A DNA stretch of 64,000 bases from Bacteroidales bacterium (GCA_017614715.1 JAGABI010000001.1:1-64000); one strand, 5' to 3'; counted from the stretch's first letter, positions 31,641 through 49,651 are shown. Numbers and translations: made by a program. Notes: generated from the sequence alone by a model not told the origin.

Positions 31641-31667
31641 AGAATTACAGCTAAATAAAACCACTTT

Positions 31668-34600
31668 ATGGCGAAAAAGACCAATCTTGCCGACCTGCCT
31701 GAAAATCAACTCGATGCTCTGAAGGAGGTTTTTAAAATTATCGATGAACAAGGTGAACTTGGTGTTGTTGATCGCAAAACTGTAGAAGAAACCATTCAGA
31801 CTATGCTGGATGATGACAGGCTTATGGCGATTTGCCGGGCCTATATGGACTATAAATATCCTGATTTTACCGGCAAGGCCCAAAGCAAGCGTACCCAAGA
31901 AGATATACTGGAATTCGGTGCCGATCTGGACGAGGACGACGAAGACGAAGAGGACAAAGAGCACGATTCCATGTTTAACAGGCTGCTTAACGCCTTTATC
32001 AGGGGAAAGGCCATTGAGGATGAAACTGATGACTCTGACAGCGATGCCGGATCCGGTTACGATCTTCTCTGCGAACTGAGCGATAATCCCACCGAGTATC
32101 TTGTGCTAGAATCCTTCAAGGAGATAAAACCTATACCAGAGTCGTATGTCCACGTGGACCTGGTTATCCCCGACATTATAGAAAAAGACGAGCTGCGCGT
32201 GGAGGTGACCGCCCTCAGGGGAGCGGGCGTGATGCATGGCTGGTTTGACAAGACCAGTATTCCACTCTACCGCGACGGCAACCATCTGCACCTGAAACCG
32301 GCTTTGCTGAGCGACCTCTTTGGCAAGGATTATAAGCTGGACAGTGACGAAGAGGACCTGTTGGTTATGACTCTCTATAAGAATGAAAAGTGGCTCTACT
32401 CCCGTAAGATTCCCATCAAAGGTCCCTGGCCGCCAAAGGCAAAACCGTTCGAATCGTGCACAAATACCACCAACACCTATCCGGATATTCCCGGGCAGAT
32501 GGCCCTAATCAACGAGCTCCCCGGTTGGGAAAATTTCAAGGCCAGAATGAACGAGATGGTCTCCCGCTGCAGTATCGGTGCACTTCGCAAAGAGGCCGGC
32601 CTTGCCAGCAACAGGCCAACCCTCCACACCGTAATTATGGGCAACCCCGGCACAGGCAAGTCAAGTTGCGTGCCGTACATGACCAGCCTGTACAAAGCGC
32701 TCGGCCTGCTGGATACAGACGATATCCATACTACGCGGGTTTCTATGCTGGCCACATCCAACGTGAACGGCGAATACGAGAGAATGATATCCGAAATCAT
32801 AAATGCGCAGGGTGGCACGCTAGTTTTCGAGAATGCCCACGAGCTATACCGTACTGATAAAAGCAACAATTACGATACCGAGCAACGCATCATACGCGCA
32901 CTTGTTGACGCGCTGGAAGATGACAAGACGTATCCCAGATGGATGCTGGTTCTGGAAGGAGAGCCCGACGGGCTGGAGTCAGTCCTGGCGTCTAATCCAG
33001 ACCTGAAAAAGCATTTGGGACAACCCATTTACATGGAGGATTTCAAGCCGGAAGAACTCTTCCGGATGGTGGATGAATGCTGCAACAGCCGCGACCTTAA
33101 ACTTAGCCCCAAGGCCCGCACGAAGCTGGAAATGTACATCCTGCATAAGTATAATCACCGCGGAGCAGGATTCCAGAACGCGTGGCTGGTGCAGGAGCTC
33201 TTTGACGAGCATATCATACCGGCAATGTACAACCGCCTGCAAGCCTTCAGCAATCCAACCCCGGAAGATCTTCAGACGGTAGAAGCCGCAGATATCCCTA
33301 TGATCTCGATAGCTACCGGCAAAGAGATGGAAGCGCTGGACGAACTTGTTGGCCTCGGCACTATAAAGACCAAAGTCAAAGACTACCTCAACGCAGTCAA
33401 TCTTGCCGGGCGCCGCATGGAGCGCGGGCTCCCCACAAATATGCCCCGCCTCCATATGGCATTCCTCGGCAACCCCGGCACGGGAAAGACCACAGTCGCC
33501 GAGATTATCGGCAAGGTCTTCGCCTCCTGGGGCATCCTCTCCGGCGGCCGCGTCATCCGCACCGAGCGGAGTCAGTTGGTTGGACAGTGGATTGGAGAGA
33601 CTGAGCACAAAATGCGCAATCTGCTGGATCGCGCCCGCGGCAACATCCTCTTCATCGACGAGGCCTATCAGTTAGTAGAAGGCGCCAACGACCGTAAAGA
33701 CTATGGCCGGATAGTGATGGACTCACTTCTTACAGAACTTGGCAAGGATAACCAGGATATGGTGGTCATCCTTGCCGGATACACCGCTCCGATGAAAAGA
33801 CTCCTGGAGAGCAACGAGGGTATCGAGAGCCGGTTCCCTAACGTCTTCAATTTTGAAGACTACACCACCGACGAACTGGTGGAGATAGGGAAACTGATGA
33901 TCAAGAAGCAGGGCTTCACCCTCACCCCCGGCGCAGAAGCCAATATGCGCACCATCATAGAGGCAGAAGCAGAGAAGCCATCTCCCCGTTTTGGCAACGG
34001 CCGCTTTGTATCAAACCTTCTGCAGAACGAGGTTCTGGCAACGCTGGGCGCCCGCACCGCAAAGCTGGATAATCCCACCAAAGAAGATTTGAGCACCATC
34101 CTCCCAGAAGATGTGGTCATTGGCAAGGCGCAAAAGGATGTGATATTCGACGATGTAGCAATTGACGCTGCCCTGGCCCGACTTGACGCACTGGCAGGAC
34201 TCACCGGCGTAAAGGCCGCCATCCACAATTTCGTAAAATCGGCCCGCTACCTGCATTCAATAGGCGAACCTTATGTGGGCAAGGGACTTCTGAGCTGGCG
34301 CTTTATCGGCAAGAGCGGCACCGGCAAAAGCACCGTGGCGGAGATTATGGCCAGCATACTCAAAGGCATGCGCCTGATTGCCAACAGCCATATCACTCAG
34401 GTTAAGGGAGAACGCATCTTGGGAGCATACGACGAGAGCAAGGCCGTGTTAGAGGAAGCGGTCAAAAAGTCCTGCAACGGCCTTATCTTCATTGACGTAG
34501 ATGACTCAAAATTCAACGACGACCGGGCCCGATACACCCGCATCGTGGAGCAGCTGCTCCTCAAGCTCAAGGAGATGACGGTAGAAGCCGGTGGCGAATG

Positions 34601-34985
34601 TGCACTGATTCTGGCCGAACTGGACGCCCCCAACGTGAATGTGGCAGAACAACTTTCCGATGCCGGTATTTACGAATTTGACCATACTCTCATATTCAAA
34701 GATTTCACACCTGATGAGTTGTACGACATCCTCTGCGACTGCTTAAAGAAGTTTGAAATAACCTTCACCCCAGAGGCTGAGAAGCATATGCGCAGCTACA
34801 TAACCACGTTGAGATCATCCATCAACGCAAACGCCCGCACCATGAAACTCATGGCCCGCACCATCCACCAGCAGGTCATCCTCCGCGAGGCGGGCCTCAT
34901 CCGCCGACCCAAGTCCCACCAAGTCCAGCTTGGCGACATTGAGACATTCAAGTGGAACAGCAAGAAAGGGAAAATTGGTTATTGA
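31668..34985 (+). CDS. Triple AAA+ ATPase of the CbxX/CfqX (SpoVK/EccA-like) type
   Basis: 1105 aa, cytoplasmic. An N-terminal region rich in Asp/Glu (about residues 80-130) is followed by a beta-rich domain, then three AAA+ modules with Walker A motifs near residues 325 (GNPGTGKS), 601 (GNPGTGKT) and 881 (GKSGTGKS). Only the second has a normal Walker B (ILFIDEAYQL). The first reads LVFENAHEL and the third LIFIDVDDS, so both lack the catalytic Glu. CbxX-type AAA proteins remodel protein complexes (Rubisco activase CbbX, ESX EccA). One active ring module with two nucleotide-binding-only modules suggests a dedicated remodeler. The last 38 nt run of its C-terminal coding region recurs in the chimera at 40156-40193. 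Substrate unknown; the island context suggests one of its neighbours. Confidence 0.88.
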   Translation: MAKKTNLADLPENQLDALKEVFKIIDEQGELGVVDRKTVEETIQTMLDDDRLMAICRAYMDYKYPDFTGKAQSKRTQEDILEFGADLDEDDEDEEDKEHDSMFNRLLNAFIRGKAIEDETDDSDSDAGSGYDLLCELSDNPTEYLVLESFKEIKPIPESYVHVDLVIPDIIEKDELRVEVTALRGAGVMHGWFDKTSIPLYRDGNHLHLKPALLSDLFGKDYKLDSDEEDLLVMTLYKNEKWLYSRKIPIKGPWPPKAKPFESCTNTTNTYPDIPGQMALINELPGWENFKARMNEMVSRCSIGALRKEAGLASNRPTLHTVIMGNPGTGKSSCVPYMTSLYKALGLLDTDDIHTTRVSMLATSNVNGEYERMISEIINAQGGTLVFENAHELYRTDKSNNYDTEQRIIRALVDALEDDKTYPRWMLVLEGEPDGLESVLASNPDLKKHLGQPIYMEDFKPEELFRMVDECCNSRDLKLSPKARTKLEMYILHKYNHRGAGFQNAWLVQELFDEHIIPAMYNRLQAFSNPTPEDLQTVEAADIPMISIATGKEMEALDELVGLGTIKTKVKDYLNAVNLAGRRMERGLPTNMPRLHMAFLGNPGTGKTTVAEIIGKVFASWGILSGGRVIRTERSQLVGQWIGETEHKMRNLLDRARGNILFIDEAYQLVEGANDRKDYGRIVMDSLLTELGKDNQDMVVILAGYTAPMKRLLESNEGIESRFPNVFNFEDYTTDELVEIGKLMIKKQGFTLTPGAEANMRTIIEAEAEKPSPRFGNGRFVSNLLQNEVLATLGARTAKLDNPTKEDLSTILPEDVVIGKAQKDVIFDDVAIDAALARLDALAGLTGVKAAIHNFVKSARYLHSIGEPYVGKGLLSWRFIGKSGTGKSTVAEIMASILKGMRLIANSHITQVKGERILGAYDESKAVLEEAVKKSCNGLIFIDVDDSKFNDDRARYTRIVEQLLLKLKEMTVEAGGECALILAELDAPNVNVAEQLSDAGIYEFDHTLIFKDFTPDELYDILCDCLKKFEITFTPEAEKHMRSYITTLRSSINANARTMKLMARTIHQQVILREAGLIRRPKSHQVQLGDIETFKWNSKKGKIGY

Positions 34986-34999
34986 TTTCGCATTTTGCG

Positions 35000-35038
35000 T
35001 TTCGCATTTTGCGAAATAAAAATAATTGCCTATATTTG
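35000..35038 (+). promoter_or_regulatory. Palindromic operator overlapping the promoter of the 35056 ATPase gene
   Basis: TTTCGCA-TTT-TGCGAAA (35000-35016) is a perfect 7-bp-arm palindrome, and its first 14 nt are a tandem copy of 34986-34999. The palindrome contains the -33 element TTTG (35008-35011). Nineteen nt later is a perfect -7 box TATATTTG (35031-35038). A repressor on the palindrome would block the promoter; the ATPase's own winged helix is a candidate. Confidence 0.65.
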
Positions 35039-35055
35039 GGCAAATAAACCACATT

Positions 35056-36180
35056 ATGAATCCATTTTATTTGATTCCACATACGCCAGATCCCTATTTT
35101 TGCGATCGAAAAAGGGATACGGATGACATCATCCGTTTCCTTGACAACGGGGCGAATGTCACACTGATTTCTCCCCGAAGATACGGAAAAACGGGTCTGA
35201 TTTATCACGTTTTTGATAAACTTTCGGAGAGAAAGAAGGCCCCGGAGCTATTCTATGTGGACATATATGCCACCGGTAGCGTAGACGAATTCCTGGCCGT
35301 TTTTGCCGAATCCATAGCCAAGGTTCTGAAGAAAGAATCCCTGGTTAAATCATTCCTGAAATTTCTGGGGAGTATCCGTCCTGTCATCAGCCAGGATCCT
35401 TTCACAAGCGAGCCTAAGTTTTCTTTTACTTTCCAGACTGATGCAGAGCGTCGTTATTCGCTGAAGGCCCTATTGGATTACTTGGAAAAAAGGCCCGGAA
35501 AAGTGATTGTCGCTATCGACGAATTCCAGCAGATCAGGAACTATGAGGGGATGTCCATGGAGGCGCTGCTGCGGACCTATATCCAGCCGCTGACCAACGT
35601 GCAGTTCATCTTTTCCGGAAGCCGCAAGCACGTGATGGCCGACATGTTCACGTCTGAGAAGAGCCCGTTCTACGAGAGTGCGGCTCTGTACACGCTGGAT
35701 AAGATTGACCGGGATGTATATGCAGGGTTCATCACTGACCAGTTTAAGAAGCAGAAAAAAAGCATCACGACGGAGGCGGTAGATTACATTCTGGACTGGA
35801 CCCGCTGCCATACGTTTTATACGCAGTCCCTCTGTAACCGGGTGTTTTCTGCCGTGAAGGCGGAAGCTGGTTTGGTGGATGTCCTGATGGGGGCCGATGC
35901 CATCTTGAGAGAGAACCACGACGCCTTCCTGGAACGCCGCTCCCTGCTTACGCCCCGCCAGTGGAAATTCCTGATTGCCGTGGCTAAGGAGGGAGAGGTT
36001 AGCGAGCCTACCGGGGCGGCCTTCTTGCAGAAGTATGGCCTTGGGGCTCCGTCTACGGTGTCGCGGCTGCTGGCGTCCCTTGTTGAGAAAGAGTTACTGA
36101 TGGAAACAAAGACACTGGTCGGCAACGACTATTGTGTGTATAATGTTTTTCTCTCCAGGTGGTTGGAGAGATTGAAATAA
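35056..36180 (+). CDS. Archaeal-ATPase-like P-loop ATPase with C-terminal winged helix
   Basis: 374 aa from MNPFYLIPHTP. Walker A is in the variant form ISPRRYGKTGL (about residue 50) and Walker B in VIVAIDEFQQI (about 155). A sensor-like Arg region (FSGSRKH) follows, and at the C-terminus is a winged helix (LTPRQWKFLIAVAKEG, APSTVSRLLASLVEKELL). These are the promiscuous AAA_34/PF01637-type ATPases abundant and mobile in gut Bacteroidales. Their function is unknown; links to toxin-antitoxin-like or STAND-like behaviour have been proposed. Here the promoter carries a palindrome, hinting at autoregulation. The following 36181-36640 holds no intact gene. Confidence 0.82.
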   Translation: MNPFYLIPHTPDPYFCDRKRDTDDIIRFLDNGANVTLISPRRYGKTGLIYHVFDKLSERKKAPELFYVDIYATGSVDEFLAVFAESIAKVLKKESLVKSFLKFLGSIRPVISQDPFTSEPKFSFTFQTDAERRYSLKALLDYLEKRPGKVIVAIDEFQQIRNYEGMSMEALLRTYIQPLTNVQFIFSGSRKHVMADMFTSEKSPFYESAALYTLDKIDRDVYAGFITDQFKKQKKSITTEAVDYILDWTRCHTFYTQSLCNRVFSAVKAEAGLVDVLMGADAILRENHDAFLERRSLLTPRQWKFLIAVAKEGEVSEPTGAAFLQKYGLGAPSTVSRLLASLVEKELLMETKTLVGNDYCVYNVFLSRWLERLK

Positions 36181-36640
36181 TTGTGAATACATGAGAATGA
36201 GGGTTTCGCGTTCTGATCTGGGTTAGGATGTTTGGACCCGAATCCGTCGAAGAAACCGGCATATCGCTCACTGTGAAGGTCGGTGCGATGATGTCGTTTA
36301 GGCTCTTGGCCAAAAGTGCCTCACAGCGCACGCTTACGGCATCACTATTCAAACCCTCCATGGATCCGACTTTGCGCAGGAAGAGAGCATCGGCTTACTT
36401 GAAGCTATGGCAGCGTTCCATGCCCAGTTACAGATAGCGCTCTGGATGTGCTGATAACCTATTTTCAACAGGCGTTTAGTTTCGTCTTCTAGGACGATCT
36501 TGCTAATCCGGCTGGCATATTCAAACTTCTTTCTGCAACCCGTTTGCGTACTATTTAAAACTGCGTGCTAACCATATTGTTTTTGAGGAGTGTCTTTTCA
36601 GTTGCATATTATCCTGTGTAATAATACCGAAGAAAAACGT
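36181..36640. other. Intergenic stretch with no intact gene; possible decayed coding remnant
   Basis: No supported gene. On the plus strand a frame running from just after a TAG at about 36300 to a TGA at about 36452 reads like protein (it contains HGSDFAQEES and LLEAMAAFHAQL), without a start codon. It may be the tail of a lost gene. I do not recognise its family. Confidence 0.3.
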
Positions 36641-36648
36641 TATATTTG
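36641..36648 (+). promoter_or_regulatory. -7 box TATATTTG upstream of the CHASE2/caspase pair
   Basis: A perfect TAnnTTTG box 39 nt before the ATG at 36688. The -33 region is weak (TGTG 22 nt upstream). Confidence 0.45.
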
Positions 36649-36687
36649 TTTGGCTATTTGTTTGTTTACAAGATTATCACAAGGAAT

Positions 36688-37887
36688 ATGCATATTAAAG
36701 CAAAAAAAACTCCGAGAGAATATCGCTATAAACCGTGGCACTCCGTTGTCTTATCCGGGATTTTATCCGTGATTCTGCTTTTTGTAGTATACATTTCGGA
36801 TAACTATGCTTTTCCTTTCTTCTCAGTTACCCCATATGTGACGTTTATAGAAAGCCTCATTCAGTCGCCGAGGCATGACGTGGTTTCAATTGATACAACA
36901 AGAATCTTTATCAATACCGGATACGAGGCTGCGTTTGTCGAGACTCGGCATGGAAAGGAGAAAATAACTGACAGAGGTGCTCTTCTTCGACTCCTTAATG
37001 ATCTGGAACAGAGAACGGATTATAGGGAAATATTCGTAGATATCCGTTTTGAAAAGGGATTAGTCACCACAGATGACTCGTCCCTGGTTGAACGACTTAT
37101 GGCGATGCCGAACACTTTTGTTGCAAAGCATTGGGACTATGGAAATGAACAAGATTTTCCCCTGATTGATAAGAGACTACTTGAGAAGGCCGGTTATGCC
37201 GACTATTCAGCGTCTATCTTTAATACTGCTTTTTCCCGCTACGAATTCATTCAGCACGGCGGAGAATCAGCGGCATTGAAGATATATAATGACATCAATC
37301 AATCGACTATCAAACATCATGGGTGGGGGATATTCTCTTACTATAAGGATGCGGGAAGACTCTGTAATAACGCAGCTTTTATACGAATCCCGGAGGATAT
37401 GTCTCCCGGTGTTTTGAGATATCGTAATAATCACACCTTTAGATATTATAATCTTGGTGAAGATATCTACGGAACCATGACCCTAGATTCTTCTATGCAG
37501 GACAGATTTTTTGAAGACTGTAAAGACAAGATTATTGTCATCGGTGATTTTGTATTCGACCAGCATGATACTTATTATAACAAGCAACCTGGTCCATATT
37601 TAAACTATCTGGCATACTCGACACTTCGAGAGGGAAGACATATCGTTGATTGGTGGTTGATTGCGATTGCTTTTGCTGTGTACTGTTTAACTTTTTCCTG
37701 GATTCTATGTAGAAAGAGAGGCTCAAGGATTCGATCAAAAATACTGAAAGTCATAATAAACATCCTCGGTTATACTACGCTTTTAGTCGTAGTTTCAATG
37801 ATATTGTTTTTCTTTACAGGAAAGGTTCTATCTATTTTTATTCCGAGCCTGTTCTTTTCTATCATTGATACCTTCTTGCCGGAATAG
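36688..37887 (+). CDS. CHASE2-like extracytoplasmic sensor protein without output domain
   Basis: 399 aa from MHIKAKKTPREYRYK. One N-terminal TM helix (about 20-40), a periplasmic domain with CHASE2 features (VVSIDTTRI, LLRLLNDLEQRTDYREIFVDIRF, KDKIIVIGDFVFDQHDTYY, GPYLNYLAYSTLREG), then two closing TM helices (about 330-350 and 365-390). CHASE2 domains are ligand sensors usually tied to kinases, cyclases or, in cyanobacteria, CHAT caspases. Here nothing cytoplasmic follows, so output must go through a partner. The gene for an exported caspase-like protein starts 51 bp downstream, making the pair a likely sensor-protease unit. AT-rich compared with the core genes. Confidence 0.72.
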   Translation: MHIKAKKTPREYRYKPWHSVVLSGILSVILLFVVYISDNYAFPFFSVTPYVTFIESLIQSPRHDVVSIDTTRIFINTGYEAAFVETRHGKEKITDRGALLRLLNDLEQRTDYREIFVDIRFEKGLVTTDDSSLVERLMAMPNTFVAKHWDYGNEQDFPLIDKRLLEKAGYADYSASIFNTAFSRYEFIQHGGESAALKIYNDINQSTIKHHGWGIFSYYKDAGRLCNNAAFIRIPEDMSPGVLRYRNNHTFRYYNLGEDIYGTMTLDSSMQDRFFEDCKDKIIVIGDFVFDQHDTYYNKQPGPYLNYLAYSTLREGRHIVDWWLIAIAFAVYCLTFSWILCRKRGSRIRSKILKVIINILGYTTLLVVVSMILFFFTGKVLSIFIPSLFFSIIDTFLPE

Positions 37888-37938
37888 ATAATAGCTAATG
37901 ATTTTTTTTCATAATTGAACTCAAATACTATATGCTAT

Positions 37939-40020
37939 ATGTGTATTAGGAACATCCATATTGTAGTGACAGCATTAGTGTGCTGTTTGCTTTTCCCGAC
38001 CGCTATTTCCACAGCGCAAGAGAAATACATCATTGTTTCTATTTATCCGTCTTCTTCTAAGGTAAAAATTAACAATACGTATAGAGATGTTAATTATGTT
38101 TTTAGCGAAGGAGACAAAATAGATTTTGAAAAAGGGCAGGAACTTACAGCAAAGAACTGTACTACAAATCGCCTTTGTATATTCTCAGAAGAAACGTTTG
38201 CTTCGAAGAAAGCTAAGACGATTGCACAATACCTGGGACATAATCAATTATCCTCTCGCGGAGAATGGACAATGATGCAGGGAAAGGAGAATAAACAAGC
38301 TTTCCCTGAAAAACGGATTGCTCTCGTTATCGGCAATGCTAATTATGAGTTTCTTCAACCACTCCAAAACTCCATTAGCGATGCTCAAGCAGTGGCAAAT
38401 AAGCTCCTGTCTCTGGGCTTTAATGTCATGACTGGGTATGACCTCCAAAGTGGTGAATATGGTAGGGGAGATGAGTTTCATGATATCGTTCGAAAGTTTT
38501 ATAAATACGCAGAGGCATATGATGTCGCTCTCCTTTATTTTGCCGGCCACGGACTAAAGTATGAAAAAGAGGATTATCTCCTTCCAAGAGATCTTTCATT
38601 GGAGAATGATGGGAGTTACGGCTTAATGAAAAAGGGGCTTTCTGTTTTAGAGCTTGTCCGCATAGGACATGACAGCGGAGTAAAGGATAATATCCTGGTT
38701 ATTGACGCTTGCCGTAATGAATCTGCAAACTGGTTAAGGGGTGACGCCATTGAAACCGGACAAATAGAACCGCCCGAGAATTGCTGTATTTTTTATTCCA
38801 CTGGGTCTGGCAAAATGGCAGAAGACTGGTCTTCCAGTAAGGATCAGAATAGTCCTTTTGCAAAAGCTTTCCTCACCAGCATCAGCGTGCCTGGAGAGAA
38901 ACTCGTTGTCGCGTTTGAGAATACACGTACGCAGGTGTACAATTCTACTTTGAAAAGGCAGAACCCGGTTTGTATCAATCGCCTCTCAAGTGACTTCGTG
39001 TTTTACAGAATGTCTTCGTCGACAGGAGCGCTATCTGTAACATCTAGCCCTTCAGGAGCCAGTGTTTTCATCGACGGAAGGGATTCTAAAGAAAAAACAG
39101 AGGCTATTATTGGTGAGTTAAGTCCAGGGACCCATTCGGTAGATCTAAAATTGGATGGATACAATGACTTTCACGCTTCGGTCCAGATTAACTCCGGCAT
39201 GACGTCAATGCTTTCTATAGCAATGGAGAAGAAATCATCGTCATCGGTGTCCAATGTTACAAGTACTAGTATTAGTACTACCAATACCAATACTGAAAAG
39301 AAATCTTCCGCTCCGATTATTCCTAAGAATTCCCTCGTCAATCAATCACTTGCGTCGTATTATTCCTTTGATAATAAAGATGCGGATGATGAATCGGGAA
39401 ATCATTTGGATGCCGTTGCCAGTAGTGGTGTGCAGTACGTTGAGGACACGCCATCGGGGATGGGATATGCAGCCCGTTTGAATGGTTTTAAGAAAGGGTA
39501 TATCAACATCCCTTATAATGTTTTTGCTGGAAAAACAAATTATTCAATATCTTTTTGGATAAAGGATTTTGATTATGGGATGGTGGTAACGGCAATCAGT
39601 ACTGATGCCCCCCGTTCCGATTTCCCCAGAGTTGTAGCAACTATGGGGAATAGGTTTAGGTTCTATACTTGTTACGATAATTGGGATTCTACGGAGAGAT
39701 TCGATTTTGATACATCGGTTCTTAAAGATTCAAAATGGCATCATGTGGTAGTTACATGCGCCCGTACAGGTAACTATGGTAATGAGGCTACAAGACAACT
39801 ATATGTAGATGGGCGGCTTGTTTCTGTGAGTAAAGGAAATGTTCACAGATATTACAGTGTTCATGGATATGATGAAGATATTATTTCAAAAATACAGATT
39901 GGAGGAGATAGAAATGGCACGTATGACCAATCCACTTCCATGACAATTGATAATGTGCGATTCTACACCATTGCTATTTCAAAGCAAACAGTTCAAGAAC
40001 TCTACCAACTGAAACTGTAA
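37939..40020 (+). CDS. Exported caspase-like (C14) peptidase with PEGA and LamG-like domains
   Basis: 693 aa from MCIRNIHIVV; a TTG 24 bp upstream is a weaker start. The signal peptide ends near ISTAQ. The caspase p20-like domain (about 120-330) has the metacaspase opener RIALVIGNANY, catalytic His204 in LLYFAGHGL and Cys258 in LVIDACRNES. Next comes a PEGA domain (about 365-430: LSVTSSPSGASVFIDG, GTHSVDLKLDGY), a Ser/Thr linker, and a C-terminal concanavalin-like LamG domain (about 470-693: YYSFDNKDADDESGNHLDA, SISFWIKD, WHHVVVTCAR, LYVDGRL). It should act in the periplasm or at the surface, with LamG binding glycan or peptide. It follows the CHASE2 gene by 51 bp. Caspase relatives serve in bacterial programmed death and defence; the target here is unknown. 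Confidence 0.85.
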   Translation: MCIRNIHIVVTALVCCLLFPTAISTAQEKYIIVSIYPSSSKVKINNTYRDVNYVFSEGDKIDFEKGQELTAKNCTTNRLCIFSEETFASKKAKTIAQYLGHNQLSSRGEWTMMQGKENKQAFPEKRIALVIGNANYEFLQPLQNSISDAQAVANKLLSLGFNVMTGYDLQSGEYGRGDEFHDIVRKFYKYAEAYDVALLYFAGHGLKYEKEDYLLPRDLSLENDGSYGLMKKGLSVLELVRIGHDSGVKDNILVIDACRNESANWLRGDAIETGQIEPPENCCIFYSTGSGKMAEDWSSSKDQNSPFAKAFLTSISVPGEKLVVAFENTRTQVYNSTLKRQNPVCINRLSSDFVFYRMSSSTGALSVTSSPSGASVFIDGRDSKEKTEAIIGELSPGTHSVDLKLDGYNDFHASVQINSGMTSMLSIAMEKKSSSSVSNVTSTSISTTNTNTEKKSSAPIIPKNSLVNQSLASYYSFDNKDADDESGNHLDAVASSGVQYVEDTPSGMGYAARLNGFKKGYINIPYNVFAGKTNYSISFWIKDFDYGMVVTAISTDAPRSDFPRVVATMGNRFRFYTCYDNWDSTERFDFDTSVLKDSKWHHVVVTCARTGNYGNEATRQLYVDGRLVSVSKGNVHRYYSVHGYDEDIISKIQIGGDRNGTYDQSTSMTIDNVRFYTIAISKQTVQELYQLKL

Positions 40021-40032
40021 GTTGTATAACCC

Positions 40033-40287
40033 ATGACCGACCAGGAAATCATTCAGGGCCTGATTGCCCGTGACGACAAGATTACCTCGTACTTTTTCTT
40101 TACGCGGTGCCAGCCGCTGTTTTACGGCATCATCAGCGACGTTTTCGACCACAACGCCCGCACCATCCACCAGCAGGTCATCCTCCGCGAGGCAGGCCTT
40201 TCCAGACGCCCCGCTGCACATCAAGTCAAGTTGGCCGACATCGCAACCTTCAAGTGGAACGGGAAGAAAGGGAGAATTGGTTATTAA
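40033..40287 (+). pseudogene. In-frame chimera: start of a sigma-C39 gene joined to the end of a triple-AAA gene
   Basis: 84 codons with intact start and stop. Codons 1 to about 40 match the start of the sigma factor at 45545 (both begin MTDQEII, with IARD and YFFF following). From about 40156 the sequence matches the last 44 codons of the AAA gene (34854-34982), with 38 identical nt at 40156-40193. The switch falls at a short AAYGCC microhomology. This is best read as the scar of a deletion between second copies of the two genes. It could still be translated, but neither parental domain is complete. Confidence 0.85.
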
Positions 40288-40306
40288 AGTCTTTTTGGGG
40301 TTATTG

Positions 40307-40351: not shown

Positions 40352-40360
40352 TTTGCGTTT

Positions 40361-41731: not shown

Positions 41732-41735
41732 GGCG

Positions 41736-41782
41736 TTTTTCATTTCGCATTTTGCGAAATGAAAAAAAGTGCGTACCTTTTG
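41736..41782 (+). repeat. Perfect palindrome and relic ATPase promoter after the DUF234 gene
   Basis: TTTTTCATTTCGCA / TGCGAAATGAAAAA (41736-41749 and 41753-41766) is a perfect 14-bp-arm hairpin with a TTT loop, 5 bp after the DUF234 stop. It resembles the operator at 35000 and has the same TTTG (41751-41754)-N19-TACCTTTT arrangement, but the ATG that follows at 41803 meets a stop within 12 codons. Probably the promoter of a lost ATPase gene; it may also act as a terminator. Confidence 0.6.
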
Positions 41783-41880
41783 GCAATAAGCTAATAGTAA
41801 TCATGAGATCTTCTACCCCTTCCCATGGGGCTCAATGAGGATATTTACAAAAAAGTCCATAATACCGACTAACGTAGAAT

Positions 41881-42600: not shown

Positions 42601-42620
42601 ACCCCTTATCGTATCGTCGC

Positions 42621-43895
42621 ATGAACAAGTCCTTTACTCCAATTGCAATTATTATTGCTGTTGTTCTGGGCGTTATCCTTTTTGTCCTGATTTGTATCTG
42701 GACAGGCGCTCTTACACAGAATGTGGTTTACTTAGGCTCACTGCTGTCAGCGGCCCTGGCGATTTTGGCTTTGATTGTGAGTATCTTAACATACATGTCC
42801 ATCGATTCAGTGGATGCCATAAGCCGCATGGACGGAAATGTTCTGGAGAACGAGGGTTATCGAACAGATTTGTCTCAGATCCTATACGAGTTTGGTTCCC
42901 GGAAAGCTCAAACGAAGAGCATAGTCGAGATGATGGAACAGCCGTATAAAAACCGTCTTTCTTCCGGAACACAACTGGCAGACAATCTACAGAAGACCAT
43001 TGACTATCTTGTTCTGATTCCTTTCATCATTCCAGGCAGAACGCTGCATAAAGAATTGAACGAAACGGCTGAAAAGGAGGCCTTCTCCAGGGCAATCACC
43101 AGGTTACTGAAGCGAATCCAGCATCAGGTCCATAGATTTGAAAGGGTTAATGCGGGGTCCAATATTCTGATTGACGAAACGTTCAAGCTTATCAAGGCTG
43201 TCCTTTATCAGCAGGTTAAAAGATATCTTCCTTTGAATGATGATAATCTGAGAGTTCTATTGCCTTCCGTTCGGGGAACGATGCTAAAGAATTCTGTCTC
43301 CAAGGTGATGTATTACAATTATTTGGGTCTGTTCTATATGCATAAAGCGCAGGACATGATGGAAGAGGCTCTCGAGGCATCAATGGAAACGATTCGGGGA
43401 TTGTCTCTTTGTCGCTCTGGTCAGGTACATGACGACAGAATAATGGATTATCTGTCCATTGCCGAGCAGAGCTTTAAGGAAGCGTTGGATGTTATTGGGG
43501 ATGATATCATGTGGAAGGCGTTCATCACCTTCAATTTGGCTCGGGCATCCTTTTTCCGGATGAGCCTCTCAGGGAATGCTTTCGATGCGGGAAGATTGTT
43601 TGACAATTCTGTTGAATGGAGACATCGACTTAATGTTTATATTGCTGACTTCATAGAAGAGAATGGGAAAGACACCCCCAGTCTTATTCTCATCAAACAT
43701 GCATTCATCGCTCAGGAATTACAGGCTCGCCTACAGAAAATCAGTTGTCTTATGGCCACTGGGCAAAGTCTGATCTCTCTTGATAACCCTGATCTATCGG
43801 CCGCTAGGCTCGAAATAGAACGGGGCAATGACTTCGGGCGGTTAAGACTAAGATACAACGACATCATGGCTACCTTTAGAGACAATCAAACATGA
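42621..43895 (+). CDS. Membrane-anchored helical protein of unknown function
   Basis: 424 aa. Two adjacent N-terminal TM helices (about 7-30 and 36-62), then a long cytoplasmic all-helical region. The region 200-300 (SKVMYYNYLGLFYMHKAQDMMEEALEAS, YLSIAEQSFKEALDVIGD) looks like TPR-type repeats. Architecture recalls membrane-anchored abortive-infection or conflict proteins that pair two TM helices with a helical sensor, but no family is recognised. It follows the channel-like gene by 20 bp. About 109 bp after it (43896-44004) contain no gene. Confidence 0.6.
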   Translation: MNKSFTPIAIIIAVVLGVILFVLICIWTGALTQNVVYLGSLLSAALAILALIVSILTYMSIDSVDAISRMDGNVLENEGYRTDLSQILYEFGSRKAQTKSIVEMMEQPYKNRLSSGTQLADNLQKTIDYLVLIPFIIPGRTLHKELNETAEKEAFSRAITRLLKRIQHQVHRFERVNAGSNILIDETFKLIKAVLYQQVKRYLPLNDDNLRVLLPSVRGTMLKNSVSKVMYYNYLGLFYMHKAQDMMEEALEASMETIRGLSLCRSGQVHDDRIMDYLSIAEQSFKEALDVIGDDIMWKAFITFNLARASFFRMSLSGNAFDAGRLFDNSVEWRHRLNVYIADFIEENGKDTPSLILIKHAFIAQELQARLQKISCLMATGQSLISLDNPDLSAARLEIERGNDFGRLRLRYNDIMATFRDNQT

Positions 43896-44004
43896 CGCGT
43901 CTCCCACAAGCTATTCACACAGAGTTTGTTATAGACAATTATTGATAGATGCTTACGAAACCTCCATAATAATACATATACAAACTGATTAGACTAGCCA
44001 CCAA

Positions 44005-45531
44005 ATGAACCATCGTTCTCATATTATCCTTCTAACTCTTTTGTTGTCGTTGTTTTCGATGACAGTACAGGCGACGCCGCAGTTAAAACGAGGGGATACT
44101 TATCCATGGTTGGTTGAAGCGCGCACAAACCTTAATGTCCGTTCAGGACCGGGAATGGGATATGATAAGTTAGGTGAACTAAATAGAGGGGCTAAGTTCT
44201 ATGCCCTTAATCAAAGAACAAATTATTGGATAGAGATTCAGTATCATGGACAGCAAGCCTTCGTAAGTTCTGAGTATATTGAATTCTTATATCAAGTTAA
44301 GCCTCAAAGCGTGTATGGAGACAAAGAGAAGAAGCCACAGAGCCCTATATTGTCTTTCCTCTCTTCCACATGGGGCTTGGTTAAAGTCATACTCATCATA
44401 ATTGCCATTCTTGTTGTTCTTGCATTCAAAGAAGAGATTGGAGCATTAGTAGCTACCGTTCTTGTGTTTGCCGGAATAGGCGCATTGATATTCTGGATTA
44501 TATTTAGGAATGCCAGCTTAGGCGGAATTATTGGCGCTATTGTCGGATTATTAATTTGGCTGAGAACGATAGTTGATTTGGGAACGATAGGCGGAGTGCT
44601 TTTATACATACTTACCTCCGGGTATTTCATTATATCCTTCCCGTTTTATTGCCTGAACCGACTCCAGTTCTTTTTGTCAGAGCCTTGGCGGAATGCCTTC
44701 AAGTATGATAATACGAGCGAAGAAAATAAACCAGCACTGCGTACCGTACTGGAGATACTGAAGATTTTGCTTTACATAATCATCACTCCGCTCCGACTGC
44801 TTAACGCTGTATATTATAATATCATAGTTCATGGACTCGTTGTTGTTTACGATCTGTTTATGGCCGTCATGGTGCCTTGCAACGAGAAAGAAGGTAAAGG
44901 CAGTTTCTGGTTATGGTTGCTTATGTTCCCTTGGCGAGTTGTCCGCTATTTAGTCATTCACGGTGTATTGTCAATCATAGAATGCATCATCTGGACCATT
45001 ATTGATATTTTTATTCCAGCTATTACTCTATACCATGGCTCCGATTTGACTGCAGGGCAGGCGATAGTCGGAAGCCGTAACAGGAACAAATCATTATCTT
45101 GGAAAAGCGGGACCTTTACCGCAAGTAAGAGCAGTTGGGGCGGAATTGGCGTTTATTTCGCTTCGAGTCGTCAAGTTGCTTTGAGATATGCTTACGACCC
45201 TAATAGATTAAGTGATTCCAATCCAGTCATAATAGTTTGCCGTGTCTCTCCAGGGCGTATTATTAACTATGCTTTAGCGCCAAATCAAGTTTATTGTGCA
45301 GCAGGCCAGTATGGCAATCCCGCCACATTAAATGATTATGGTCAGAAGCATCATTTCACTACCGGGGAATGGTGGAATGGCAGAGGAGGTTATTGGGAAT
45401 ACTGCCTTTTTGACTGGAAGAACTTGTATAATAATCGCTGGCGTATCCGTCCGCTTTACGTCTATAATGATAGGACCCATTTCATTCAGCACATAAAGGG
45501 GGGAATGGCGCATTGGACATTCAAGTTATAG
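44005..45531 (+). CDS. SH3b, multi-TM and ADP-ribosyltransferase (PARP)-like fusion protein
   Basis: 508 aa. The signal peptide (to about 24) precedes a bacterial SH3 domain (about 35-95: ARTNLNVRSGPGMGYDKLGEL, AFVSSEYIEFL). Several hydrophobic helices (about 120-230 and 250-340) follow. The C-terminal 165 residues look like the PARP/ART fold: LYHGSDL at about 343-348 (nicotinamide-binding His-Gly), GIGVYFASSRQVALRYAY at about 380-395 (the GxYFA/YA motif), and WEYCLFD at about 464 (candidate catalytic Glu). If so, it would ADP-ribosylate a target using NAD. Membrane topology decides whether the ART domain faces the cytoplasm and cannot be settled by eye. The sigma-C39 gene starts 13 bp later. 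Confidence 0.68.
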   Translation: MNHRSHIILLTLLLSLFSMTVQATPQLKRGDTYPWLVEARTNLNVRSGPGMGYDKLGELNRGAKFYALNQRTNYWIEIQYHGQQAFVSSEYIEFLYQVKPQSVYGDKEKKPQSPILSFLSSTWGLVKVILIIIAILVVLAFKEEIGALVATVLVFAGIGALIFWIIFRNASLGGIIGAIVGLLIWLRTIVDLGTIGGVLLYILTSGYFIISFPFYCLNRLQFFLSEPWRNAFKYDNTSEENKPALRTVLEILKILLYIIITPLRLLNAVYYNIIVHGLVVVYDLFMAVMVPCNEKEGKGSFWLWLLMFPWRVVRYLVIHGVLSIIECIIWTIIDIFIPAITLYHGSDLTAGQAIVGSRNRNKSLSWKSGTFTASKSSWGGIGVYFASSRQVALRYAYDPNRLSDSNPVIIVCRVSPGRIINYALAPNQVYCAAGQYGNPATLNDYGQKHHFTTGEWWNGRGGYWEYCLFDWKNLYNNRWRIRPLYVYNDRTHFIQHIKGGMAHWTFKL

Positions 45532-45544
45532 AATAATACAACAT

Positions 45545-46585
45545 ATGACCGACCAGGAAATCATTAAGGGCTTGATTGCCCGTGACGAAACAATTACGCA
45601 GTACTTCTTTTTTGAGAGGTGCAAGTCGGTCTTTTATGCCGTCCTGAAGGATATCTTCGACTACAATGCCGATTACGACGAGTTGGTGAACGAACTCTAC
45701 GAGCATCTTATGGCGAACGATGCGCGTCGTCTCAGGATGTTCGAAGGGCGCTCGAATATTTATTCCTGGCTATCAAAAGTGGCCCGGAATTATTTCCTTG
45801 ATAAAAAAAATCGCGAAAGCTTGATAGAAAAAGGGCTTGACGAGCGTCTTTTAAAGGAAGCCGGGAAAATTGAAGATGAGAATCCTGGCCAGCCGGACAA
45901 AAAGCAGGAAGAAGAAGAGATGCGGGTTGCCGCCATACTAGACCAGATTGATAACGAGAGATACAGGTTCGTTATCAGGGAGCATATTCTCGAAGGGAAA
46001 GACTTCGATGAACTGGAGAAGCTGACCGGCATCAAAAAAGCCAATCTTTACAACATCAAAAAGCGGGCACTGAAAAAATTGGAGCAAATCATGAAGATTG
46101 CCCATACCAGAAGCGATTCGCTCTGTGCTGTCCGTTGCGAGGAGTTTGTATTGCATTGTTTCGGTATACATAAATCGCTGGACGATCTGCGCGATCTTGC
46201 TATTGCCAAGGGATGGCTCATGGAAGATGGCGCCAAGGTCCATGACTTGGGCAATATCGCAAAAGAGTTTGGATTGCATGTAGAGAAAGTGGAGAATGCC
46301 ACCCTTCACGATATATTGAAGGCGCTTGACGATGGTAAGCAAATCATTGCGGCCGTGGATGGAGGGGAGCTTATTGGGGACCGCGTTGAGGAAAAACTGG
46401 AAGACATTATGGTCGGTGGCATAGTGGATCATTGCGTGGCGGTGCTGGCCGCTGACGTTGAAATGGACGACGTTGCTCTCTATGACCCGGCCTTCGGCCC
46501 CATTCCTTTGTCTGTTTCCGTTGAGCACTTCATGGATGCCTGGGCCGACTCTAATTATCACTGCGTACTGATAAGCAAAGAGTAA
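45545..46585 (+). CDS. ECF-type sigma factor fused to a C39-like papain-fold domain
   Basis: 346 aa. Residues 1-180 are sigma-70 like: region 2 (about 40-95: DYDELVNELYEHL, IYSWLSKVARNYFLDKKNRE) and region 4 with an HTH (about 135-180: FDELEKLTGIKKANLYNIKKRALKKL). Residues about 185-346 resemble a C39/papain-like peptidase: Cys in SLCAVRCEEFVL, HDLGNIAKEFGL, His in GGIVDHCVAVLA, Asp in ALYDPAFGPI. The fused domain could be a protease, a self-processing switch, or an inactive ligand sensor. It lies 13 bp after the ART-like gene and 23 bp before the alpha-CTD-like gene, so they are probably cotranscribed. A partial second copy survives in the chimera at 40033. Confidence 0.8.
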   Translation: MTDQEIIKGLIARDETITQYFFFERCKSVFYAVLKDIFDYNADYDELVNELYEHLMANDARRLRMFEGRSNIYSWLSKVARNYFLDKKNRESLIEKGLDERLLKEAGKIEDENPGQPDKKQEEEEMRVAAILDQIDNERYRFVIREHILEGKDFDELEKLTGIKKANLYNIKKRALKKLEQIMKIAHTRSDSLCAVRCEEFVLHCFGIHKSLDDLRDLAIAKGWLMEDGAKVHDLGNIAKEFGLHVEKVENATLHDILKALDDGKQIIAAVDGGELIGDRVEEKLEDIMVGGIVDHCVAVLAADVEMDDVALYDPAFGPIPLSVSVEHFMDAWADSNYHCVLISKE

Positions 46586-46608
46586 ATGCAAGATAAGAAC
46601 ATCATTCT

Positions 46609-47415
46609 ATGTCTTCATCACAAAAGCACAGCCTGAACAAAAAGCCAATCCCCGTAAATCCCTGGTTGGCGGAAGTTATTAGAGAATACCGTCAAAATCG
46701 TGGAGATGACTACCTGCGCAAACGATATAAATCATTCCAAGATGATTACCCAAGAATAGGCTGGACTGAATTCCTTGAGTACACTGCTTTAGAAGACAAA
46801 GTGGCCAGGGAGCCCTTCCTCCTTACAGCGCGCAAGGATTTCGGGTTTTCCCAACACTTGACAGACCTGCTTAATTCTTTTCAAATCTGCAATGTGGCCG
46901 ACCTGCTTCAATTTACAGTTGAAGAGATGAAAATGTTGCTGGAAGATTTGAATGAATCTGTGGACCCCATTGAGCAGTTTCTTGCCCTCCATGGGTATCA
47001 TCTCTATAGTCACAAAGAGAACACATACAAGATGACGGTCCTTTCTGTCGATAAAGAACAAGATGAGCAGAAAGATATCATCCGCACCCTAACGGGCAGG
47101 ATTACCAAGATAATGAGCGCGACATCTGTACCTAGACGCCAGAAAGTTGAAGAAGCCTTTTCTTCTTTTATAGACCTTGAGCAGATGATCCGCAACGCCG
47201 ACTCCAATCTCGCCTCTCAATTAGATGTTGTTATCGAATTCGGGAAATTTCTGGAAGCGCAAATGGCAGATTACCCGGACCTGGCGAGAGAGGCGCAGCG
47301 GATATGTGAACGTGCGCTATATCTTACAGATATAATTCACGGCAAGAGCCACCCTGTAACCACCGAGGTCAACGAGATGTGCGAGGCCATCTACAAAAAG
47401 CTGAAGAATCTCTAG
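46609..47415 (+). CDS. Protein with an RNA polymerase alpha-CTD-like domain
   Basis: 268 aa, soluble. Residues about 75-135 (FGFSQHLTDLLNSF, ICNVADLLQFTVEEMKMLL, EQFLALHGYHL) follow the helix-hairpin-helix pattern of the RNA polymerase alpha C-terminal domain (S-x-R-x-x-N-x-L, I-x-T-V-x-D-L, L-G-x-K-S/T). The C-terminal third (ADYPDLAREAQRICERALYLTDIIHGKSHP) looks like TPR helices. It starts 23 bp after the sigma-C39 gene. An alpha-CTD-like module next to a sigma factor suggests a transcription accessory that helps recruit or position polymerase at the island's promoters; this is inferred from pattern and context only. Confidence 0.6.
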   Translation: MSSSQKHSLNKKPIPVNPWLAEVIREYRQNRGDDYLRKRYKSFQDDYPRIGWTEFLEYTALEDKVAREPFLLTARKDFGFSQHLTDLLNSFQICNVADLLQFTVEEMKMLLEDLNESVDPIEQFLALHGYHLYSHKENTYKMTVLSVDKEQDEQKDIIRTLTGRITKIMSATSVPRRQKVEEAFSSFIDLEQMIRNADSNLASQLDVVIEFGKFLEAQMADYPDLAREAQRICERALYLTDIIHGKSHPVTTEVNEMCEAIYKKLKNL

Positions 47416-47441
47416 GCGCATACGGTATCTGCGACCTCAAC

Positions 47442-48530
47442 CTATCGCAGTTTCATCGTACACACCCTCCCGGACTTCTGCATCCAGCTGGAGTGCTGTT
47501 CGTAGGCGTACTCGCTCTCGCATACCCACAGGATGTTTGTCTTGAAGCCGGCCGGAATCTCCGGAGCCGGAGCTTCGCCGTCGGTGAGAATGACTAGTCC
47601 GTCATAATTCCGCTCGGCGGCATAATCGATGGGGGCCTGGAAATCGGTTCCGCCGCGACCAACGGCGATTGTATCTTTTATTGCATGCTTAAGAGTCTGG
47701 CTAGTTGTCACTTCTGTCTCAAACTGAATCACTTCTATCTCTGTGATGCCGTACTTGAAGGCGCTGTTGACTACGCCCAGGAAATAACTGATGGCATCGC
47801 TGGTGACTGAACCGCTGACGTCCAAGGCAATCAGCAGGCGGCTGGTGAACTGACGCACCGAGCCCATATTGTCGAAGCCGGTACGTCGTGAGGGGCGCAT
47901 CCGCGTGAGGTGACGCTCCTGCGAAAGGACCTGTGCCCGGAACCCGAAGAGGACCTTCTTCCAGTCGATAGACGCACGCGAGGAGGCTTTGACCATTTCG
48001 GCAAGGTCTCCGGCGATCGACCCCCAGTCTTTGATACCGGCAATGAGACCGTTGATAATGGCTATCTGCAGCGGGTCGTCATCCCATAGTTCTGACAGAT
48101 CTGTGTTCGCATCCCGTCTGTCGCTCTCCTCTCCGCTCTGTTCTGCCAGGTGGGCGTATGTCTCATATGGCAACCCGGGCTGGAATCCGTAATCAGCAGG
48201 TGTTTTCATGCCGAAACGGGCGAATGGGTAGTTGTCGGCAACCGTGAGGTTGCTTCCCACTGCGATTGCCTCACCGCTGCAACCGTCCGGACGGCGTTCA
48301 TATGGGTGCTTGAGCAGGATGCGGATAGCCTCTGTCTTCAGGGCTTCCTCCAATGCAATGTCGGACATCTCCCTCACAAAATCGGGGTTATACTCTATCC
48401 TGCCGCAACCGCTACGCACCGGGCATTTGATTTGATGGTTAGGGACGACCTCGTGGGAACAGATTATTACGAAGAGCGCCGGCTCGCTGACAAACCAGCG
48501 CTCAAAAATCTTATCAATCCTTGCCCTCAT
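47442..48530 (-). CDS. DUF2201 / VWA-like protein partnered with MoxR ATPase
   Basis: 362 aa. The C-terminal VWA-like domain has a complete MIDAS: ALDVSGSV, GRGGTDF, LTDGEAP. The N-terminal half corresponds to the DUF2201 predicted metallopeptidase, but the expected HExxH-type helix reads TEAIRILLKHP, so at least two metal ligands are gone and peptidase activity is unlikely. Its ATG directly abuts the MoxR stop (TAG then ATG), giving tight coupling. MoxR-VWA pairs act as chaperones that load metals or remodel partner proteins and occur in several conflict systems. It converges on the alpha-CTD-like gene with a 26-bp gap. Confidence 0.85.
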   Translation of the reverse strand: MRARIDKIFERWFVSEPALFVIICSHEVVPNHQIKCPVRSGCGRIEYNPDFVREMSDIALEEALKTEAIRILLKHPYERRPDGCSGEAIAVGSNLTVADNYPFARFGMKTPADYGFQPGLPYETYAHLAEQSGEESDRRDANTDLSELWDDDPLQIAIINGLIAGIKDWGSIAGDLAEMVKASSRASIDWKKVLFGFRAQVLSQERHLTRMRPSRRTGFDNMGSVRQFTSRLLIALDVSGSVTSDAISYFLGVVNSAFKYGITEIEVIQFETEVTTSQTLKHAIKDTIAVGRGGTDFQAPIDYAAERNYDGLVILTDGEAPAPEIPAGFKTNILWVCESEYAYEQHSSWMQKSGRVCTMKLR

Positions 48531-49610
48531 CTATTTTATGCTTTTTACGTACAGGACCAGAGTCATTGTGAGCACCTGACATTCGCGGGCTATGAAGGCT
48601 ACCGCGTTGGGGTAGGTCGCTTGCACATAGAGGTTGGCAAAATGGGCTGCAGCCTCCTTGCGGTTCTTTACCAGAAAGTCAAAGTAGTCATTCAGATTCT
48701 TCCTTACATCTTCTTTCTTGTCGGCAGGCACCTTCTCCACCTCCAGCAGACGGAAAACGCCCTCGTTGACAATAGACATCTCGTGCAAAGAGTAAGGAGT
48801 AAGTTTCTCCTTCACCTTCTCAAAGTTGTAGAGTACATCTTTGCCAGAGACTACCTTCTTATTGTTGACACTTCCCATAAAAGCGACGGTGGCTTTGGCC
48901 CCCACTACGGAGGCGATTACCTTCTGATGGAGCGTGGTCAGGGCTTCGGCTCCCTTGATGATGTCGGATACACGCTTCCAGGCGCGGCGGTCGGGAGTCT
49001 TGTCCAGGCCGGTGTCTTCATTCTCCTTGGAATCGGCGTTGCGGTCCAGCCAAAGGCTGTTCCCTTCGATGAAGTCAATGACCCGGGGGTCTACTTCTTC
49101 CCGCTTTGCCCAGAGAAGCCACTCCTGCACGGTGGGCTGGAAATTTATGATATTGAAGCGACTTACGAGTGCCGGATCCAGGTCCGTCAGCTGATACTGC
49201 TCGCCTTCGTTGACGGCGCTGATTATACGGCTTCCCTCCGGGAGTTGACGACCGGCAAGCTTCCGGTTGAGTGCAAGGTCCATGATGGTCTGGAGAATCT
49301 CCGGACGGGCTCGGTTGAGTTCGTCAAGGAACAGGACTATAGGCTTGCCGTCCAGAGGGAACCAGTAGGGCGGCATGAACTCGGTCTTGCCGGTCGCCTC
49401 GTTTTTGGATGGAATACCAATCAGGTCGCCCGGGTCGGCCATCTGCCCAAGGAAGAGCGCCACTACAGGCATGCCCTGCTTGGCAAAGTATTCGGTGAGG
49501 ATTTCGGACTTGCCTATGCCGTGGCGTCCCACCAGCATCAGGTTGTGATGTGCCGGAGTCACTTCCAGCATCTGCATAAGTTCAATTGTGTTTACTCGGA
49601 TATTAGACAT
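48531..49610 (-). CDS. MoxR family AAA+ ATPase
   Basis: 359 aa. Walker A LVGRHGIGKSEIL (about residue 28), Walker B PIVLFLDELNRARPEI (about 92), sensor-like RIISAVNEGEQYQL, LVSRFNIINF. This is the MoxR pattern, a hexameric ATPase that works with VWA proteins. It is upstream in a two-gene operon with the DUF2201/VWA gene. Orientation is opposite to the rest of the island, so it may be an independent neighbour rather than a component. Confidence 0.9.
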   Translation of the reverse strand: MSNIRVNTIELMQMLEVTPAHHNLMLVGRHGIGKSEILTEYFAKQGMPVVALFLGQMADPGDLIGIPSKNEATGKTEFMPPYWFPLDGKPIVLFLDELNRARPEILQTIMDLALNRKLAGRQLPEGSRIISAVNEGEQYQLTDLDPALVSRFNIINFQPTVQEWLLWAKREEVDPRVIDFIEGNSLWLDRNADSKENEDTGLDKTPDRRAWKRVSDIIKGAEALTTLHQKVIASVVGAKATVAFMGSVNNKKVVSGKDVLYNFEKVKEKLTPYSLHEMSIVNEGVFRLLEVEKVPADKKEDVRKNLNDYFDFLVKNRKEAAAHFANLYVQATYPNAVAFIARECQVLTMTLVLYVKSIK

Positions 49611-49651
49611 ACTATGGATTGATGAGCATTTTATAGACGCACCGGGTTAAA

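What the first reader, a model, noticed from the sequence alone, without database searches (positions are those of the whole stretch)
31668..49610. Candidate multi-component stress or conflict system with sensor, caspase, ART-like and pore-like proteins, AAA+ remodelers and its own transcription module
Seen: a triple AAA+ protein, CHASE2 sensor, exported caspase, 2TM-channel-like and TM-anchored helical proteins, SH3-TM-ART-like protein, sigma-C39 fusion, alpha-CTD-like protein and a MoxR/DUF2201 pair, in about 18 kb between housekeeping genes. Known: caspases, PARP-like domains, AAA chaperones and MoxR-VWA pairs each recur in bacterial conflict systems. Inferred: they form one regulated system that senses envelope state (CHASE2, SH3, LamG) and triggers a lethal or stress response. 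I know of no described system with this exact set.
Basis: partly seen in the sequence, partly recalled or inferred. Interest (0 to 1): 0.85.

Follow-up and report, generated by a model that had tools for sequence, protein, structure and literature searches.

The report
Sigma-protease island with caspase and ART
A gut/rumen Bacteroidales genome carries a 21-kb movable gene island whose parts (a sigma factor fused to a protease-like domain, a triple AAA+ motor, a caspase with its sensor, and a membrane PARP-like enzyme) recur together, reshuffled, in related bacteria; this fits a previously undescribed, self-regulated stress or cell-death/defence system whose function is still untested.

Summary
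The genes lie in a 21.1-kb variable island (29775-50877) between purB and tpiA; a congener has 751 bp there. Confirmed: a CbbX-type triple-AAA protein, CHASE2, an exported caspase with intact His/Cys, a PARP-like ART with an invariant H-Y-E triad, a sigma factor fused to a C39 papain-fold domain (Z 15.5) that keeps its Cys/His, and MoxR/DUF2201. Not confirmed by profiles: "2TM channel" and "alpha-CTD".

The parts recur together: 19 ART loci, mostly rumen Bacteroidales, carry the AAA, sigma-C39, alpha-CTD-like or CHASE2/caspase genes in reshuffled combinations at unrelated sites. A scar (40033-40287), a sigma N-terminus joined in frame to a second AAA C-terminus, shows a collapsed repeat containing caspase, sigma and AAA.

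Elsewhere in Bacteroidales the sigma and C39 halves are separate, overlapping genes. The C39 protein carries an anti-sigma-like N-terminus, often a RyR domain, and heads operons with TIR, STAND, dynamin or Hsp70 genes.

Best reading: a mobile, self-regulated conflict/stress island whose sigma factor is controlled by its own protease-fold domain. Lethality, trigger and phage defence are inferred. No described match was found in the papers held.

The parts
29775..50877 (.). Island limits: variable segment between purB and tpiA
   Evidence: Congener G092 aligns at 91-93% up to window 29774 and from 50878 and has only 751 bp between; G114 and G034 hold other short content there
30421..30996 (-). 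u191: small conserved protein divergent from the AAA gene; left-hand gene of the cassette
   Evidence: 37-63% identical homologue next to AAA3 or ART in L052, L053, L054, L101 at unrelated chromosomal sites
31192..31503 (-). u103: small protein, possible island gene
   Evidence: Short homologous remnants in L070 and L062 near ART remnant or gene
31668..34985 (+). Triple CbbX-type AAA+ protein (AAA3); middle module canonical, modules 1 and 3 with degenerate Walker B
   Evidence: Pfam AAA + AAA_lid_6, CbbX/EccA1, motifs; 62-64% homologues at ART loci L053, L054, L101
35026..36180 (+). ATPase_2 protein following AAA3
   Evidence: PF01637 E 2e-11; 66% homologue follows AAA3 in L101
36646..37887 (+). 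CHASE2 membrane sensor
   Evidence: PF05226 E 1.7e-5; homologues beside caspase in L066, L067, L058
37915..40020 (+). Exported caspase (H212/C266) with PEGA and LamG
   Evidence: PF00656 E 2e-26, PF08308, PF13385; catalytic motifs
40033..40287 (+). Recombination scar: sigma N-term (43 aa) fused in frame to the C-terminal tail of a second AAA3
   Evidence: 65-67% to sigma-C39 N-term, 81% to AAA3 tail
40361..41731 (+). ATPase_2-DUF234 protein (probable passenger)
   Evidence: PF01637, PF03008
41881..42600 (+).
   Evidence: Hydropathy only; no Pfam hit
42621..43895 (+). TM-anchored helical protein
   Evidence: Two N-terminal hydrophobic segments; homologue 32% near ART and a RyR protein in L068
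44005..45531 (+). Signal peptide-SH3-TM bundle-PARP-like ART; H344, Y384, E465
45545..46585 (+). ECF sigma (1-182) fused to C39 papain-fold domain (185-344; C194, H296, D314)
46609..47415 (+). alpha-CTD-like protein, conserved island family
   Evidence: Homologues at ART loci L054 (two), L058, L069 and in only 2 of 200 family genomes; RpoA-CTD resemblance not confirmed by Pfam
47442..49610 (-). DUF2201 vWA + MoxR AAA pair, island cargo
   Evidence: 89% and 94% homologues on the same side of the island in L052; also found alone in G080 and G015
49652..50491 (-). N279: unknown protein, island cargo
   Evidence: Homologues beside VWA/MoxR in L052

Best explanation
A mobile, self-regulated conflict/stress island. 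SHOWN: the genes form a recurrent, recombining set found at unrelated chromosomal sites, and the sigma factor is covalently joined to a C39 papain-fold domain whose separate homologues look like anti-sigma partners heading TIR/STAND/dynamin/Hsp70 operons. INFERRED: the C39 domain holds the sigma factor inactive until a signal, perhaps an envelope disturbance sensed by the CHASE2 protein or SH3 domain, makes it change shape or self-cleave. The freed sigma then switches on the island. The CbbX-type AAA motor, with one canonical module, remodels or gates a partner and sets the threshold. The outputs are proteolysis by the exported caspase and ADP-ribosylation by the membrane-held PARP-like enzyme, giving growth arrest or death of the stressed or infected cell.
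For: Recurrence: AAA3, sigma-C39, alpha-CTD-like, CHASE2/caspase or the helical protein in reshuffled sets at 11 of 18 ART loci. L053 is a compact u191-AAA3-sigmaC39-ART run; G163 keeps u191-AAA3-ATPase_2 ... sigma remnant-ART ... alpha-CTD-like. G000 and G163 are the only 2 of 200 family genomes with the alpha-CTD-like gene and with near full-length AAA3 above 60%. G404, the only other ART genome among 272 of the order, also has AAA3 and the sigma/C39 pair, at other loci. The scar links caspase, sigma and AAA3 in one ancestral repeat. Different sites: flanks are purB/tpiA, pnp, a dihydrolipoamide-dehydrogenase-like gene, an M28 peptidase, and esterase/phosphatase genes. Module: sigma genes overlap the C39 gene by 8-23 nt in 8 of 9 measured loci; Cys and His of the C39 triad are conserved; anti-sigma-like zf-HC2 N-terminus (E about 0.01) and RyR (E 1e-31). 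Downstream genes: dynamin, Hsp70, TIR, nSTAND1.
Against: AAA3 relatives in other Bacteroidales lack these partners in the stretches read, and 7 of 18 ART loci show none of the core partners (some lie near contig ends). Most ART loci were found through ART itself, so the counts are ascertained. G404 holds the genes at separate loci. No function was tested. PADLOC gives no complete known system. The ART family was absent from viral contigs, phages and plasmids, so how the island moves is unknown. One sister sigma (L035) sits by SusC/D-like genes.
Confidence: 0.55

Rival explanations
1. A defence-island hotspot: independent mobile defence or stress genes accumulate at tolerant sites, and their co-occurrence reflects shared mobility, not a joint mechanism.
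For: purB-tpiA is a variable spot in the genus; MoxR/DUF2201 occurs without the rest; gene order is shuffled; ART also sits by a tubulin-like operon (L063).
Against: The same few rare families recur together at unrelated sites and in direct adjacency (L053, L059); the caspase-sigma-AAA scar; AAA3 and alpha-CTD-like are rare in the family.
Confidence: 0.22
2. A non-lethal envelope-stress regulon: the sigma factor senses envelope damage and induces repair or remodelling; caspase and ART act as regulatory modifiers.
For: Exported caspase with PEGA/LamG, CHASE2, SH3 and TM proteins all face the envelope; ECF factors commonly serve envelope stress (general knowledge).
Against: Mobile and patchy distribution (ART in 2 of 150 and 2 of 272 sampled genomes, own genome included); sister sigma-C39 operons carry TIR and STAND genes, typical of immunity.
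Confidence: 0.15
3. An interbacterial antagonism locus in which the ART is a delivered toxin.
For: PARP/ParT/MbcT-like ART fold; a stray C-terminal ART fragment in L070 recalls polymorphic toxins.
Against: No secretion or immunity genes seen; the ART sits behind a multi-TM bundle that would keep it in the producer's membrane.
Confidence: 0.05

Closest known systems
EACC2-caspase / ECF sigma systems (Kaur et al. 2021, PMC8195603)
   Same: Caspase, variable modules including CHASE2, and a coupled ECF sigma factor
   Different: There caspase and CHASE2 share one polypeptide with an EACC2 domain, with a DUF1822 TPR partner; here the sigma is fused to a C39 domain and joined by a triple AAA and a PARP-like ART
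Metacaspase operons with sigma-70 genes, and a CHASE2-metacaspase protein (Asplund-Samuelsson et al. 2012, PMC3501461)
   Same: Caspase next to a sigma gene (Myxococcus, Fibrobacter and others); caspase joined to CHASE2 in Trichodesmium
   Different: Different phyla; no C39, AAA3 or ART described in the passages read
[quoted passage not shown] 2020, PMC7159879)
   Same: MoxR + vWA pair in a conflict-type island
   Different: No third component (VMAP, iSTAND, beta-propeller) seen; DUF2201 protein has no C-terminal effector
CmdTAC (PMC11618068) and ParT/MbcT ART toxins
   Same: ADP-ribosyltransferase as likely output; fold resemblance to ParT and MbcT
   Different: Membrane-bundle SH3-ART architecture and sigma/AAA regulation are not part of those systems (own knowledge; only abstracts seen)
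CbbX / EccA1 AAA+ proteins
   Same: AAA modules and lid (E 1e-46 to CbbX)
   Different: Three modules in one chain, two with degenerate Walker B

Membership tests
ECF sigma factor | sigma2 and sigma4 regions with sigma fold, no large extra regions | tested here: met
   Pfam sigma2 E 0.008, sigma4 E 9e-4 (below cut-offs); Foldseek hits SigE, SigH, RpoE; VIA to E. coli sigmaE region Z 10.5, rmsd 2.4, 91 aligned
Peptidase C39 (papain fold) | C39 fold | tested here: met
   3erv Z 15.5, ComA Z 15.1, rmsd 2.2-2.7
Peptidase C39 (papain fold) | Cys-His-Asp/Asn catalytic residues | tested here: met
   C194/H296/D314; Cys and His conserved wherever the domain was aligned correctly, third residue D or N
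Peptidase C39 (papain fold) | proteolytic activity | not testable with these tools
   needs biochemistry
PARP-like ADP-ribosyltransferase | ART fold with H-Y-E triad | tested here: met
   H344, Y384, E465 invariant in 20 sequences; 13/20 match PF00644, best 3e-8; Foldseek PARP/tankyrase E about 2e-3; VIA Z about 7, moderate
EACC2-caspase-ECF sigma system | EACC2 domain fused N-terminal to the caspase | not tested
   no EACC2 profile was available to me
EACC2-caspase-ECF sigma system | DUF1822 TPR partner | tested here: not met
   no DUF1822 in Pfam scans of the window genes
MoxR-vWA ternary system | third component and effector fused to vWA | tested here: not met
   362-aa protein with DUF2201_N at 165-217 and DUF2201 at 233-339; no other domain or partner found
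Known anti-phage systems (PADLOC 2.0) | complete set of system genes | tested here: not met
   only partial generic hits (caspase E 8e-8, IetA-type AAA); DUF2201, N279 and DUF234 proteins were not scanned

The most novel reading that the evidence does not exclude
The sigma/anti-sigma-C39 pair is a dedicated transcription switch for immune-like operons across Bacteroidales: a protease-fold anti-sigma (often with a RyR domain) gates an ECF factor that turns on exchangeable TIR, STAND, dynamin, caspase or ART effectors; in this island the switch has become one polypeptide, a sigma factor regulated by its own protease-fold domain.
Probability: 0.4. Interest if true: 0.85.

Novelty: new variant of a known kind. 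Interest (0 to 1): 0.68.

Why it matters
If right, Bacteroidales, dominant in ruminant and human guts, use an inducible, sigma-driven programme to deploy caspase and PARP-like effectors, linking transcriptional control to bacterial immunity in a phylum where few defence regulators are known (own assessment). A sigma factor fused to a papain-fold domain is a directly testable switch.

Tried and rejected
MoxR/vWA ternary system: no third component. MoxR/DUF2201 as mere housekeeping flank: rejected, since purB and tpiA are 0.7 kb apart in G092, so the pair is island cargo; yet it also occurs alone. Phage or plasmid origin of ART: no relatives in viral contigs, phages or plasmids. Direct repeats at the island ends (12-14 bp exact): none. 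Conserved promoter upstream of AAA3: no convincing alignment. Distant multi-AAA relatives: no shared partners within the stretches read. Literature queries for RyR/C39/sigma, ART/caspase/sigma and sigma-regulated defence gave no matching system; most subscription papers are not held. CHASE2-caspase 'fusion' in L066: one open frame, but a probable caspase start lies inside it, so I count it as adjacency.

Full report
WHAT IS THERE. Between purB (28402-29796) and tpiA (50803-51624) the window holds a 21.1-kb segment. In congener G092, window 26359-29774 and 50878-53135 align at 91% and 93%, with only 751 bp between them; G114 and G034 have other short contents at this site. GC is lower (0.39-0.50) for most island genes than for flanks (0.56); AAA3 (0.53) and MoxR/vWA (0.54-0.56) are closer to the flanks.

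DOMAINS. Pfam confirms the AAA, caspase-PEGA-LamG, SH3, DUF234/ATPase_2, DUF2201 and MoxR proteins and weakly CHASE2. The AAA protein has three CbbX-type modules, only the middle with a canonical Walker B. The ART domain: PF00644 is weak in the window copy but reaches 3e-8 in relatives; the triad H344-Y384-E465 is invariant in 20 sequences; the model (mean pLDDT 76) resembles PARP/tankyrase, ParT and MbcT. It sits behind a multi-TM bundle; Prevotella versions often lack the signal peptide and SH3. The sigma-C39 model (mean pLDDT 84) matches C39 peptidases at Z 15, with C194, H296 and D314 in the catalytic positions. The '2TM channel' and 'alpha-CTD' assignments found no profile support.

RECURRENCE. 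A scan of 84,980 genomes with the ART alignment gave 19 loci, all Bacteroidales or Bacteroidetes and mostly from ruminant stomachs. Neighbourhoods: L053 u191-AAA3-sigmaC39-ART; L054 u191-AAA3-GT-like-ART-alphaCTD-alphaCTD; L059 AAA3-ART; L061 sigma-AAA3..ART; L066 ART, AAA3, CHASE2+caspase; L067 CHASE2, three caspases, ART, AAA3; L058 caspase-CHASE2-ART-ART-alphaCTD; L052 u191..ART..sigmaC39..N279..vWA-MoxR. G163 (= L069; L101 and L043): u191-AAA3-ATPase_2-(AAA3 tail remnant)..GT-like-(sigma C-term remnant)-ART..alphaCTD. Flanks differ: purB/tpiA in the window, pnp in L053, a pyridine-nucleotide disulphide oxidoreductase in L054, M28 peptidase in L101, esterase and His-phosphatase in L052. Within the family the alpha-CTD-like gene and near full-length AAA3 above 60% identity occur in just G000 and G163 of 200 genomes. 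In the order, ART occurs in G404 only (besides G000) of 272 genomes; G404 also has AAA3 and the sigma/C39 pair, on other contigs, and its ART is split over two frames.

THE SCAR. ORF 40033-40287 starts 12 nt after the caspase stop, as the intact sigma starts 13 nt after the ART stop. It reads MTDQEIIQGLIARDDKITSYFFFTRCQPLFYGIISDVFDHNA (sigma N-terminus) followed in frame by RTIHQQVILREAGL...GKKGRIGY (AAA3 C-terminus). The simplest reading is a former tandem arrangement [AAA3..caspase-sigma][AAA3..ART-sigma] that lost the stretch between sigma and the second AAA3.

THE SIGMA-C39 MODULE. Outside this island the two halves are adjacent genes, usually overlapping by 8-23 nt. The C39 protein begins with an anti-sigma-like segment (zf-HC2 E 0.008-0.01 in L170 and L167) and in many loci ends with RyR (E 1e-31) and sometimes zinc ribbons. 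Genes that follow or lie nearby encode M48 peptidase, RCK-channel, TIR-FGE, TIR, nSTAND1, WD40/ankyrin, dynamin and Hsp70-like proteins. One sister sigma (L035) sits beside SusC/D-like genes, so not every relative is conflict-linked. Fusion plus conserved adjacency argues that the C39 domain acts on the sigma factor (inference).

MECHANISM. Most likely an inducible conflict/stress island: the signal relieves C39 restraint, sigma drives the island, AAA3 gates, and caspase and ART execute. Steps shown: architecture, catalytic residues, recurrence, recombination. Steps inferred: signal, inhibition, proteolysis, lethality, phage relevance.

KNOWN RELATIVES. Caspase-sigma linkage and CHASE2-caspase proteins are published (PMC8195603; PMC3501461); MoxR-vWA ternary systems likewise (PMC7159879). 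No paper found describes sigma-C39, triple AAA and PARP-like ART together. I rate it a new variant of a known kind, with a less likely, more novel reading centred on the sigma/anti-sigma-C39 switch.

LIMITS. Most loci are MAG contigs, many truncated; genes were called by a simple longest-ORF method; co-occurrence counts are ascertained through ART; the binomial is a rough guide only.

Noticed in passing
window 29775-50877; G092, G114, G034: purB-tpiA is a variable insertion spot in this genus: 0.75 kb, about 2 kb, about 3.5 kb or 21 kb of unrelated content.
   Followed up: partly
L063:438-9836: ART gene directly follows an operon with a Tubulin_2-like GTPase protein (1176 aa), a 719-aa and a 1233-aa protein; ART may plug into other systems.
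   Followed up: no
L166, L167, L169, L170, L165: Sigma/anti-sigma-C39 pairs are near or head operons with dynamin, Hsp70, TIR and nSTAND1 genes in several Bacteroidales families.
   Followed up: partly
L034, L036, L037: Related sigma/C39-RyR loci encode a 690-700 aa TM-RCK (TrkA/Slo-like) protein ending in a RyR-like stretch; L036 and L037 also have an M48 peptidase and a zinc-ribbon protein.
   Followed up: partly
window 34986-35026 and 41731-41881: Palindromic TTTCGCATTTTGCGAAA sequences upstream of one ATPase_2 gene and downstream of the other.
   Followed up: no
L070:8606-10252: Stand-alone C-terminal fragment of ART (84 aa, 68%) with a u103 remnant nearby, in the same genome as L054.
   Followed up: no
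L164:9116-10463: G404's ART is split over two frames, a possible pseudogene or assembly error.
   Followed up: no
L054:7545-9914, L056:7654-9840, L101:15319-17463: A 714-789 aa protein with a glycosyltransferase-like N-terminus (by eye) and TM helices lies directly upstream of ART at three loci; no Pfam hit for the L054 copy.
   Followed up: no
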